The position numbers and the translations under genes are program-made. Below, one piece after another: positions 3,022 through 21,199 of a stretch of 64,000 nucleotides of DNA. Origin of the DNA: Erinaceus europaeus. Taxonomy: Eukaryota; Chordata; Mammalia; Eulipotyphla; Erinaceidae. The notes beneath the pieces are model-generated. The model saw only the letters and a list, made by a program, of their open reading frames with translations. It was not told the origin of the DNA and searched no databases. Within the stretch, counting starts at the first letter, position 1, and every line of letters begins with the position of its first letter. The DNA lies in assembly GCF_950295315.1 (NCBI RefSeq), contig NC_080171.1, positions 34,634,698 to 34,698,697 of the forward strand, in the 5' to 3' direction.

Positions 3022-3182
3022 ATTTTTGTAAATTTATTTTTATTTATTTGGAGAGAGAGGGAGAGAGTGAGATCAGTCAGTGCACTGCTCAGTTCTGGTT
3101 CATTGTGGTACTGGGGATTGAACCTGGGACCTCAGGCATGAAAGTCTTTTGCATAACCATTATGCTATCTCCCTAGCCCAAG
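3022..3182 (-). mobile_element. Second SINE family (GAGAGA/CCTCAGGCATGA type)
   Basis: Carries GAGAGAGAGGGAGAG, then CACTGCTCAGTTCTGG, GGGGATTGAACCTGGGACCT, CTCAGGCATGAAAGTC and CATAACCATTATGCTATC. The complement GGTTCAATCCC resembles a tRNA-type B box. The same block recurs at 9,567, 14,604, 25,532, 43,525 and 62,690, defining a separate short SINE family of about 140-190 bp. Confidence 0.75.
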
Positions 3183-18097: not shown

Positions 18098-18107
18098 AAT
18101 TGTGCTT
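18098..18107. repeat. 10-bp target duplication, left copy
   Basis: AATTGTGCTT. The identical right copy is 21,190-21,199. The pair defines both ends of the retrotransposon. Confidence 0.9.
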
Positions 18108-18109
18108 TG

Positions 18110-18179
18110 GGGATGCATTGGATCGACCTTCCTGTGGTGCATCCCGTGAGTACCCATTCATTGGGGTAACTGACGATCC
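18110..18179 (+). ncRNA. Candidate HDV-like self-cleaving ribozyme
   Basis: Five segments pair as a nested double pseudoknot. P1: 18,110-18,116 with 18,139-18,145 (7 bp, GGGATGC/GCATCCC). P2: 18,120-18,125 with 18,174-18,179 (6 bp, GGATCG/CGATCC). P3: 18,126-18,128 with 18,136-18,138 (3 bp), closing a 7-nt L3 loop TTCCTGT that contains the UCCU seen in HDV L3. P4: 18,151-18,155 with 18,164-18,168 (5 bp). J4/2 is ACTGA, placing a C (18,170) followed by N-R-A where HDV has catalytic C75. P1.1 is weak: 18,132 can pair with 18,146 but the second pair is missing. In known families the ribozyme cuts at the first base of P1 and so sets the 5' end of the element; here P1 starts 2 nt after the target duplication. 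Such ribozymes are known in R2, RTE, L1Tc and Baggins. Activity is not shown. Confidence 0.8.
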
Positions 18180-18200
18180 TTCCTAGCCGACTGAATCCAC

Positions 18201-19265
18201 ATGGATCCCAGTCACTTTCAAAGCCAGCAACAAGCAGCTCCTGACAGCTTTCAAGCTGTTGGTCCTGCTCTTCGAGTCCTCCAACTTAATGTTGAGGGGC
18301 TGTCCTTTGACAAACGCGTTCTTATTGGTCAATTGGCGATAAAGCATCAGGCAGATGTTATTTGCCTACAAGAAACACATATAGCAGTCGATGAAGCTTC
18401 TCAATTCACCATCAGTGGATTCGATTTGATATGCTATAATCTCCATCCTAAACACGGCCGAGCCATCTACGCCAAATCGTGTCTTGCGGACGTTTACCAT
18501 ACGGCCTCTTCGACCTTCTATGACTCCATTACTATTGGAACTATTCAGCTCGTCAACGTATATAAGCCTCCCAGTGCCTCATGGGATAATGAAGTCCTGC
18601 ATAGCCCGAATCACCCAGCTGTTTACGTTGGAGACTTCAATAGTCATCACCAAGACTGGGGATATTCCTCCACTCGTGCTATCTTAGCCGACTGGGCTTC
18701 AGCGAATGACCTCTCCCTATTATACGATCCCAAACAGCCAGGCTCTTTTCACAGTGCTAGATGGAATAAAGACTCGTCACCCGACCTGTGCTGGATTAGC
18801 ACAGTCAACGGCCAAGCCTTTCCCACTACCAGACACGTTCTCAAGATCTTCCCGCACAGTCATCACCGCCCAGCTATCATCCACATTGGTCTCCAGCTCC
18901 CACTGATTCTGTGCTCGGAGAAACTAAGATGGAACTTTCGGAAAGCAAACTGGCGTCTGTTCAGTGATCTTACCAACAAATCTATTCCTGCAATTCCAAT
19001 TAACTCTATCCCCTCTGAAGATTCCTACAGGCGCTTCAGCCAAGCCATCTTCAAAGCAGCTTCCCAAGCCATTCCTCATGGGAGACATGCTAACTATATG
19101 CCTTGTCTTGATGCTGAATGCGAGCAACTACTAAAGCAGTATAATGAGTCGGGCGACCCAGATGTGGCTGACCATCTCATTGCCTCCCTGGATGCAGCAC
19201 GCCAAGCCTGCTGGCAACAACTCACGGAAAGTCTGAACTTCACCCACTCAAGTAGGAAGGCCTAG
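18201..19265 (+). pseudogene. APE-type endonuclease domain of the LINE polyprotein
   Basis: 354 codons from the first in-frame ATG (an in-frame TGA lies 9 nt upstream) to an in-frame TAG at 19,263. It is the N-terminal endonuclease that nicks target DNA for target-primed reverse transcription. Visible APE/exonuclease III-family motifs: LQLN (Asn30), QETH (Glu58), GDFN (Asp145, Asn147), SPD (Asp195) and SHHRP (His222). The last motif is S-H-H rather than the usual S-D-H. Residues 1-20 are a short Gln- and Ala-rich leader, and the part after about 235 is the linker to the RT. The TAG is the only break before the RT, and the frame continues in phase beyond it, so it is a point nonsense rather than a domain boundary. 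Confidence 0.9.
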
Positions 19266-20162
19266 AAGCTTCTTCATAGTCTGGGTGCCGGTAGCCAACC
19301 CCCTCCCATCTCCCGTCCTCCCGTATCTCCAAACTCAGTGGCCAGTCACCTAACTCAAGTTGGATGTGCTAAGATCGACCCAGTCTGGAAAAGAGAAATT
19401 TCCCATGAGTGGTCATCCCACTTCCGTTTATCTTGTCCATCTCCAAAACTCTCTCCCTTTACACTGTCTGAACTGGAAGACGCTTTGAAGAGGGTTAAAC
19501 CGGGAACGGCTGTTGGCTATGATAACATCACCCCAGAACTCATTCTTAACTTGGGCCCCGCGGCAAAGAAGTGGCTCACTTCATTCCTGTCCCACAACTT
19601 GGAATCTGAATCTATGCCCAAAATTTGGCATCGCGTGAAGATAATAGCAGTTTTGAAACCAAAGAAAGACCCAACACTGGCCGCCAGCTATAGACCAATT
19701 TCTCTCCTCTCCGTGTGTTACAAACTCCTTGAGAGGCTGCTTCTGTCACGTATTTCTCCTCTTACAGAGAAATTCCTATCACCTGCCCAAGCTGGTTTCC
19801 GCCCAGGAAGATCTACCTGCGAACAAGCCCTGGCCCTCTCAACTTACATTAAAAATGGATTCCAGAAGAATTTAAAGACGGGTGCTGTCTTTGTTGATCT
19901 CACAGCAGCCTATGACATGGTCTGGCACCGTGGTCTCCTAGTCAAGATCTCAAGATGCCTGCCTCCATGGGTGGCCAACACTATATCGTTTCTTATCCAA
20001 AACAGAAGATTCCGGGTGCATCTGGGTGACAAGTCTAGCAGATGGAGACTTGTCTCAAGTGGCCTCCCCCAGGGCTCTCTTCTGGCTCCTATGCTATTTA
20101 ATATTTACATCAATGACCCCCCAGAAACTTCTTCAAGGAAGTTCATCTACGCCGGCCGATGA
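19266..20162 (+). pseudogene. Reverse transcriptase fingers and palm, N-terminal part
   Basis: Continues in the same frame as the endonuclease. A later ATG (19,338) gives a 274-codon open stretch, but nothing suggests it is a genuine start. RT motifs in order: KPKKDP...SYRPISLL, QAGFRPGRST, the A motif FVDLTAAYDMVW with the catalytic Asp codon at 19,896, and the B motif SGLPQGSLLAP at about 20,055-20,087. The frame ends in TGA at 20,160 because an extra GGCC (or equivalent 4-bp unit) lies between the Ala and the first Asp of the YADD motif. The role in the intact element would be copying its RNA from the nicked target. Confidence 0.9.
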
Positions 20163-21177
20163 CATCTGCTGTGCAACTCAGGCATCCAAGTTCGACATCC
20201 TCGAGGAAACACTCACGAAAGACATGTCTCTGATATCTGATTACTGTAAAAAATGGCGACTAATCCCTAGCACTGCAAAAACGGTATCATCTGTTTTCCA
20301 TCTACACCATGCCTCGGCCTCGCGTGAGCTTAATGTGCAGCTTGGTGATACAAGAATCCGGCATGAAGCCCAGCCAGTCTATCTTGGCGTTACTCTCGAT
20401 CGCACTCTGTCATTTCACAAACATCTCATAAAAACTGCAGCAAAGGTGGGCATGAGGAATAATATCATTGCAAGACTGGCCAGCTCCTCATGGGGTGCGA
20501 GCGCTTCCACACTACGATCATCATCTCTGGCATTATGCTATTCCACTGCAGAATACTGTGCCCCAGTTTGGTTCCGTAGCCCCCATGTCCACTTGGTCGA
20601 TTCCAAATTACACTCCTCCATGAGGATAATTTCTGGAACCATCCGTTCCACCCTGGTTCCATGGCTGCCAGTTCTTAGCAACATCGCCCCACCATATATT
20701 CGTCGGGATGCAGCATCATCTAAGTTCATTTCCCACATCTATGCTCGACCGGACCTGCCAATATATGCGGATATCTTCGCCCACCCTGTCCAACGCTTGA
20801 CGTCTCGTCACCCAATCTGGTCCCCTACACCTGCACTGAACTTCTCTGTTCCAGTCTCTTGGAAACAGAGTTGGCAGTCAGCTGAGGTAAAGAACAAACA
20901 CCTCATCACAGACCCCTCCAAGCGTCAACCCGGCTTTGACCTAGCACGTTATGATAGGGCCCTCCTCAGTCGCTATCGAACAGGCCATGGCCTGTGTGCT
21001 GCTATGTTCCATCGCTGAGGAGCCACAGACGACCCGAACTGCCCCTGCGGCTACAGACAGACTATGACCCACATAGTCAACGACTGCCACCTCTCCAGAT
21101 TCAAAGGAGGTCTCGAAACTTTACATCAGGCTCAACCTGACGCTGTTGACTGGCTATGGAAGAAGGGCAAACACTAG
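20158..21177 (+). pseudogene. Reverse transcriptase C motif, thumb and C-terminal zinc-knuckle-like region
   Basis: Resumes at the catalytic Asp-Asp in the +1 frame and stays open to TGA 21,016. Beyond that TGA the frame continues 52 codons to TAG 21,175. The section after 21,018 holds CPCGYRQTMTHIVNDC, a CxC-x7-H-x4-C motif typical of the C terminus of jockey/CR1-type LINEs. Further landmarks are WRLIPSTAKTVSSVF, YLGVTLDRTLSFHKH and RYRTGHGLCAAMFHR. The TGA replaces a codon in the segment where relatives usually have an aromatic residue after the His-Arg/Lys, as I recall, so a point nonsense is likely. Confidence 0.88.
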
Positions 21178-21189
21178 AAGAAGAAGAAG
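21178..21189 (+). repeat. (AAG)n 3' tail of the LINE
   Basis: Four AAG units follow the TAG stop without any intervening 3' UTR and run to the right target duplication. Such short microsatellite tails, rather than poly(A), are typical of RTE-, CR1- and jockey-like LINEs and unlike the L1 copies in this window. Confidence 0.85.
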
Positions 21190-21199
21190 AATTGTGCTT
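21190..21199. repeat. 10-bp target duplication, right copy
   Basis: AATTGTGCTT, identical to 18,098-18,107. The first A is also compatible with the AAG tail. Confidence 0.9.

What the first reader, a model, noticed from the sequence alone, without database searches (positions are those of the whole stretch)
18108..18180. HDV-like ribozyme at the exact 5' end of a LINE in a mammalian locus
Seen: four helices in the nested double-pseudoknot order. P1 is 7 bp (18,110-18,116 with 18,139-18,145), P2 6 bp (18,120-18,125 with 18,174-18,179), P3 3 bp (18,126-18,128 with 18,136-18,138) and P4 5 bp (18,151-18,155 with 18,164-18,168). L3 contains UCCU, and J4/2 is ACTGA with a C at 18,170 in the catalytic position. 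Known: HDV-like ribozymes set the 5' end of R2, RTE, L1Tc and Baggins LINEs. Inference: this element uses one, and P1 starting 2 nt inside the target duplication fits self-cleavage plus a few added bases. Weak points: P1.1 has only one good pair, and the extra bases T and G precede P1.
Basis: partly seen in the sequence, partly recalled or inferred. Interest (0 to 1): 0.95.

Follow-up and report, generated by a model that had tools for sequence, protein, structure and literature searches.

The report
Self-cutting RNA starts a hedgehog LINE
In an animal genome, likely a hedgehog's, most examined copies of a jumping gene that were not cut short begin at the very base where a predicted self-cutting RNA at their front end would cut, so this RNA likely trims each transcript to its proper start.

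Summary
Rfam's HDV model aligns end to end and puts its catalytic C on C18170, but with 25.5 bits against a cut-off of 50. The weight comes from other copies in the host genome. In 40 similarity-chosen copies homology begins at 18110 in 35, 18111 in 2, 18112 in 3, after flanks unrelated except in one pair. In 40 copies chosen by reverse transcriptase, 8 begin at 18110, 2 within the next two bases, 30 at scattered downstream places, none upstream beyond chance. Of 20 copies with a clear target duplication, 10 have no base between it and G18110. Short derivatives keep the ribozyme and the 3' end. The one reported genome-wide RF00094 match (86 of 48,892 candidates scored) is a copy of this element. 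Against: no covariation beyond shuffles, 115 copies with T18113, nearly all an uncompensated U.U in P1, a competing hairpin, no cleavage test. Best reading: a predicted HDV-like ribozyme that likely sets the 5' end of a Vingi-type LINE; a new member of a known kind.

The parts
18098..18107 (+). 5' copy of target-site duplication AATTGTGCTT
18108..18109 (+). two extra bases (TG) between duplication and element, not a shared part of the other copies
18110..18180 (+). predicted HDV-like self-cleaving ribozyme; predicted cleavage 5' of G18110
18110..18116 (+). P1 5' strand (with 18139-18145)
   Evidence: 7 of 7 pairs
18120..18125 (+). P2 5' strand (with 18174-18179)
   Evidence: 6 of 6 pairs
18126..18128 (+). 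P3 5' strand (with 18136-18138)
   Evidence: never varies in 38 distinct rows
18129..18135 (+). L3 UUCCUGU, with U18129 (49 of 49) and G18134 (48 of 49)
18139..18145 (+). P1 3' strand
18151..18168 (+). P4 stem-loop; 5-bp register in this copy, another register possible in most copies
18170..18170 (+). predicted catalytic C in J4/2
   Evidence: aligned to the model's C; C in 49 of 49 copies
18174..18179 (+). P2 3' strand
18110..21189 (+). non-LTR retrotransposon copy (about 3.08 kb) ending in (GAA)n
18201..19265 (+). start of reading frame, endonuclease domain; in-frame stop at its end
19266..20162 (+). reverse transcriptase domain, followed by a frame break
21190..21199 (+). 3' copy of target-site duplication

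Best explanation
The 71 bases 18110-18180 are predicted to fold into an HDV-like self-cleaving ribozyme that would cut the RNA just 5' of G18110, and the untruncated copies of this LINE examined here begin at that base or within two bases of it. Inferred mechanism: host transcription reads through the element, the ribozyme folds as it is made and removes all upstream RNA, leaving a 5'-OH G. That RNA, with a leader of 91 nt before the first ATG that is mostly ribozyme, is translated and reverse transcribed at a nick, so each new copy starts at G18110 whatever lay upstream of its source, sometimes with a few extra bases. Shown: the pairs, the shared 5' end, the duplications, the short derivatives. 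Inferred: cleavage, read-through transcription, any role in translation.
For: Fold and geometry. Rfam HDV model aligns over its whole length and places its catalytic C on C18170. 5' end: 35 of 40 similarity-chosen copies at 18110, 2 at 18111, 3 at 18112 (whose query began at 18110); flanks of 120 bases unrelated except one pair, L011/L023. RT-chosen copies: 8 of 40 at 18110, 1 at 18111, 1 at 18112, 30 at element positions 55-1316; two of the 8 match 3 and 8 bases further into flank, read as chance. Exact duplication of 8 or more next to the tail in 20 of 40 copies; bases between it and G18110: 0 in 10, 1 in 2, 2 in 4, 3 in 1, 4 in 2, 7 in 1. A nested copy in L024 sits in a known target, with one extra T before GGGATGC. 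C18170 in 49 of 49 copies, P3 invariant in 38 distinct rows. Short derivatives keep ribozyme and 3' end: 7 of 40, five with one junction, that junction 69 times genome-wide. The one RF00094 match at E 10 or less in 2.72 Gb (86 of 48,892 candidates scored) is a copy of this element.
Against: RF00094 score is half the gathering cut-off, lower in two other copies (21.6 and 18.5 bits, E 0.29 and 1.1; beside the first, an unrelated family has E 0.28). The genome-wide match has E 8.16, and sub-cut-off matches also occur in 4 of 14 control genomes. No covariation beyond shuffles: one pair with a double change, reached by 370 of 500. 115 pattern matches have T18113; 99 of the 100 listed keep T18142, a U.U mismatch in mid-P1. 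The ribozyme stretch varies more than the 120 bases after it among 40 copies (65 of 2840 against 23 of 4800 letters). The best nested fold is an extended P1 hairpin, -29.4 kcal/mol against -19.9 for P1+P3+P4, before P2 (duplex -7.5) is added. P1.1 has one good pair. No cleavage data.
Confidence: 0.86

Rival explanations
1. The 5' end is set by a promoter inside the element that starts transcription at G18110, and the fold is chance or a structured leader.
For: A fixed start site also gives copies that begin at one base. The leader folds best, without pseudoknots, as a plain extended hairpin, and no covariation is seen.
Against: The full double-pseudoknot geometry with the catalytic C at that very base is expected about 6e-7 times by chance (descriptor written afterwards). 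The one reported genome-wide HDV-model match is a copy of this element.
Confidence: 0.09
2. The ribozyme was active in the ancestor but is decaying in part of the family; those copies, above all the U.U subfamily, move by other means or in trans. This overlaps with the best explanation, which it limits to the ancestor or the majority form.
For: 115 pattern matches with T18113, nearly all with an uncompensated P1 mismatch. PMC3774820 (section 12) reports that P1 mismatches, one of them U-U, were postulated to explain inactivity except at high Mg2+. Variation is higher in the ribozyme than just downstream.
Against: The majority form has a perfect P1; the catalytic core is nearly invariant. PMC3774820 section 16 says about a quarter of R2 ribozymes carry 1-2 P1 mismatches, though at the top of the stem, not its middle.
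Confidence: 0.25
3. The finding is a chance fold at an arbitrary truncation point of a longer element.
For: Many copies of this family are truncated or rearranged (30 of 40).
Against: No copy in either set of 40 shows element sequence upstream of 18110, and many independent copies share this start.
Confidence: 0.01

Closest known systems
L1Tc/ingi ribozyme (Pr77 hallmark) of trypanosomatid LINEs
   Same: HDV-like fold in a 77-nt stretch at the 5' end; short relatives (NARTc, RIME) that are truncated versions; duplications of 7-11 nt used in that screen (PMC4035085, passages, section 5)
   Different: Protist hosts; Pr77 also acts as promoter (abstract listings); sequence relation to this element not tested, no Pr77 sequence was fetched
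R2 retrotransposon ribozyme and R2 SIDEs
   Same: Ribozyme sets the 5' end; extra bases at 5' junctions; short elements made of ribozyme plus 3' end (PMC3774820, passages, sections 12 and 16; PMC3414825, abstract and passages)
   Different: R2 inserts in 28S rRNA genes; this element has varied flanks and duplications and matches Exo_endo_phos endonuclease families. R2 not found in mammals per PMC5035012 and PMC5753468 (passages)
CPEB3 ribozyme of mammals
   Same: HDV-like ribozyme in mammalian DNA (PMC10919898, passages; PMC4908430, passages)
   Different: Lies in an intron of a host gene, not at the end of a transposon; not reported among matches
Vingi LINEs of hedgehogs and reptiles
   Same: Reported in hedgehogs and reptiles, in a paper whose title calls them an Ingi-related clade recently expanded in hedgehogs (PMC5753468, passages and reference list)
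   Different: No ribozyme mention found: terms vingi + ribozyme listed 3 papers, by title and abstract on other subjects; the Vingi paper itself is not held. Membership recalled, not tested

Membership tests
HDV-like ribozyme | Nested double pseudoknot with P1, P2, P3 (P4 variable) in order | tested here: met
   All pairs standard in this copy; 92.1% of cells paired over 38 distinct rows against 37-49% when slid
HDV-like ribozyme | Catalytic C in J4/2 | tested here: met
   C18170 aligned with the model C, C in 49 of 49 copies
HDV-like ribozyme | Conserved U and G in L3 (reverse wobble; PMC3774820 section 12) | tested here: met
   U18129 49 of 49, G18134 48 of 49
HDV-like ribozyme | P1.1 of one or two pairs (PMC4908430 passage) | tested here: inconclusive
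   One C-G pair possible between L3 and G18146; G in 44 of 49
Rfam RF00094 (HDV ribozyme) | Gathering score of 50 bits | tested here: not met
   25.5 bits; not filed under RF00094
HDV-like ribozyme | Compensatory changes in helices | tested here: inconclusive
   Copies too alike: one double change, reached by 370 of 500 shuffles; a P1 mismatch shared by a subfamily
HDV-like ribozyme | Self-cleavage 5' of P1, lost on C to U | not testable with these tools
   needs an assay
LINE with 5'-terminal ribozyme (R2/L1Tc kind) | Predicted cleavage site equals the element's 5' end | tested here: met
LINE with 5'-terminal ribozyme (R2/L1Tc kind) | Endonuclease and RT domains | tested here: met
   PF03372, PF14529, PF00078 in two of three frame pieces; the third piece matched none
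R2 | Insertion in 28S rRNA genes | tested here: not met
   flanks and duplications differ from copy to copy
Vingi clade | RT closest to Vingi reference elements | not tested
   no Vingi reference was at hand; none of the 120 hits listed bears that name; assignment is recalled

The most novel reading that the evidence does not exclude
A mammalian LINE lineage is processed by an HDV-like ribozyme inherited from the common ancestor of Ingi and Vingi elements. The ribozyme plus the 3' end forms a portable minimal unit that has spawned several ribozyme-headed short families in a hedgehog, down to about 206 nt, so self-cleaving RNAs have recently been scattered by the hundreds through a mammalian genome.
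Probability: 0.45. Interest if true: 0.78.

Novelty: new member of a known kind. Interest (0 to 1): 0.66.

Why it matters
HDV-like ribozymes are known to free R2 and L1Tc/ingi LINEs from host transcripts; in mammals the HDV-like case met in the passages read is the CPEB3 intron. Here the copies of a LINE in a likely hedgehog genome point to the same device at work on an element that is not tied to rRNA genes. That makes questions testable in one genome: how self-cleaved, uncapped RNAs would be translated, how a ribozyme copes with scattered insertion sites, and whether short ribozyme-headed families mobilise in trans. Judged by titles and abstract starts, the listings held no paper on a ribozyme in Vingi (one search listed only 10 of 1,297); most subscription papers are not held, so prior description cannot be excluded.

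Tried and rejected
Relatives elsewhere: scans of viral contigs with the RT and with an RT alignment gave none. The bacterial genome scan gave two contigs, L089 and L090, with an RT relative and without a fold fitting my descriptor; their element 5' ends are probably missing. So covariation over distant relatives could not be tested. A compensated form of T18113 was not seen: 99 of 100 listed keep T18142, one has C. Other copies in the window: none. Rival 'longer family': rejected. Rows: 50 copies have this 5' end (40 + 10); L055, deleted across P3 and P1, was left out of alignment A2, which holds 49; I entered L052 one base short at its 5' end by mistake, so its G1 shows as a gap, and it has a one-base gap in L3; L053 has a 7-base deletion in L4. 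Of the 40 similarity-chosen copies, 9 have no 3' end in the fetched stretch. Searches for changed T18142, for the 206-nt junction and for a host marker gene did not complete. A full count of ribozyme copies was not asked for.

Full report
What was checked. The stretch was read and each helix counted: P1 7, P2 6, P3 3, P4 5, all Watson-Crick. The order P1, P2, P3, P3', P1', P4, P4', P2' is the nested double pseudoknot of HDV-like ribozymes. Rfam at its own cut-offs finds nothing in the window. With relaxed cut-offs on 201 bases, RF00094 aligns over positions 1-89, 25.5 bits, E 0.053, and its C before uAA falls on C18170. Dividing that E-value by the 4227 families and scaling to 64 kb gives about 0.004 for this family alone; that is my arithmetic. 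Random sequence gives the full descriptor 5 times in 60 Mb (window composition) and 0 times in 60 Mb (element composition).

The element. 18110-21189 is a 3.08-kb non-LTR retrotransposon copy with a (GAA)n tail and a 10-base duplication, 18098-18107 and 21190-21199. Two of three pieces of its frame match endonuclease and reverse transcriptase families; the third matches none. This copy is broken: an in-frame stop after the endonuclease part, a frame break near 20,140-20,160, and a stop at 21016-21018. The first ATG of the frame is at 18201, so the ribozyme is most of the 91-nt leader. I take it for a Vingi element and the host for a hedgehog. This is recall plus paper passages (PMC5753468) and was not tested; no call names the host.

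The 5' end in the family. The host genome (2.72 Gb) is held. A 201-base query gave 1221 candidates, 40 scored. All 40 were examined, the window's own included. Homology to the element starts at 18110 in 35, at 18111 in 2 and at 18112 in 3 (whose query began at 18110). The 120 bases upstream, compared all against all, are unrelated except in one pair, L011/L023. Because that query favours complete 5' ends, I picked by hand, down the list, 40 of the 137 copies scored by an RT protein and compared them with a reference that includes 300 bases upstream of 18110. Eight start at 18110, counting L056 and L067, whose match runs 3 and 8 bases further into flank, which I read as chance; one starts at 18111 and one at 18112; 30 are cut or rearranged at element positions 55 to 1316. 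So there is a sharp 5' end among scattered truncations, and it is the base that the fold predicts.

Junctions. An exact duplication of 8 or more bases right after the tail was found in 20 of 40 copies; of the other 20, 9 lack the 3' end in the fetched stretch and the rest fail the strict test. The gap to G18110 is 0 in 10, 1 in 2, 2 in 4, 3 in 1, 4 in 2, 7 in 1. L024 holds a 206-nt copy nested in another copy, so its empty site is known from the other copies: duplication CTGAACTTCT, one extra T, then GGGATGC. PMC3774820 (passages) describes non-templated bases at R2 5' junctions and fewer than 40% canonical junctions in Drosophila.

Short derivatives. Seven of the 40 copies are short by internal deletion but keep both ends: five share the junction 211/2663, one has 316/2721, one 271/2617. 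The 211/2663 junction occurs 69 times genome-wide by an exact pattern. A smaller form, 1-149 plus 3023-3079, is in L024 and, read by eye, in L088. R2 SIDEs are built the same way, from ribozyme and 3' end (PMC3414825, abstract and passages).

An independent look. RF00094 run on the whole genome (48,892 first-look candidates, 86 scored) gave one match at E 10 or less: 32.3 bits, E 8.16; the same search rang below the cut-off in 4 of 14 control genomes. Fetched and read, the match is a copy of this element at its 5' end, with the 5' strand of P4 and most of J1.1/4 deleted. The E-value alone is not significant; that the one match should be this element is telling.

Evidence against. In 49 aligned copies (38 distinct), covariation does not exceed shuffles; one P2 pair in L086 changes on both sides, at CpG positions that mutate easily. 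P1 is paired in 93.6% and P2 in 96.1% of cells. T18113 is found in 115 pattern matches (55 + 60); of the 100 listed, 99 have T18142 and one C. So many copies suggest a change in a source lineage that breaks a P1 pair. PMC3774820 section 12 notes that a U-U mismatch in P1 was postulated to explain inactivity of a sunflower ribozyme except at high Mg2+; section 16 says about a quarter of R2 ribozymes have one or two P1 mismatches, at the top of the stem, whereas this one is in its middle. The ribozyme stretch varies more than the next 120 bases, mostly in P1, P2 and one L3 site, while P3 (0 of 294 letters) and J4/2 (1 of 294) are nearly fixed. Two other copies score 21.6 and 18.5 bits with RF00094, little or no better than chance matches beside them. 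A nested extended P1 hairpin is predicted to be more stable than P1+P3+P4; adding P2 brings the two close by my sum. Such a competing fold could also be a switch, as proposed for L1Tc (PMC4035085, passages).

Conclusion. What is shown: the pairs, the sharp 5' end at the predicted cleavage base, the duplications, and the short forms that keep this end. What is inferred: cleavage, release from host co-transcripts, a role in translation. It works like the ribozymes of R2 and L1Tc/ingi. As a member of HDV-like ribozymes it meets the fold, the catalytic C and the L3 letters; P1.1 and compensatory change are inconclusive, the RF00094 cut-off is not met, and cleavage could not be tested.

Noticed in passing
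L018, L022, L028, L030, L035 and genome-wide: A short family with one internal deletion junction (element 211 to 2663), at least 69 copies by exact pattern.
   Followed up: partly
L088:101-283; L024 nested copy: A roughly 206-nt form with only element 1-149 and 3023-3079, SINE-sized; copy number not obtained.
   Followed up: partly
18109 and its counterpart in 40 copies: The base just before G18110 is G in 19 and T in 17 of 40 copies, perhaps microhomology or added bases at second-strand priming.
   Followed up: no
18113 / 18142 in 115 pattern matches: A subfamily with a mostly uncompensated U.U mismatch in P1 has multiplied; how is unexplained.
   Followed up: partly
18170-18173: J4/2 contains UGA; PMC3414825 (passage) notes a stop codon in J4/2 of 18 of 19 R2 elements.
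   Followed up: no
L089, L090: Two bacterial assemblies (an uncultured proteobacterium bin and a Solemya symbiont) hold LINE-like RT fragments, likely eukaryote contamination.
   Followed up: partly
G000 protein search: 41,572 first-look RT candidates and many long open frames among 137 scored suggest a large, recently active family.
   Followed up: no
L070/L083 and L071/L077: Two pairs of RT-chosen copies share the same truncation point (element 883 and 507).
   Followed up: no
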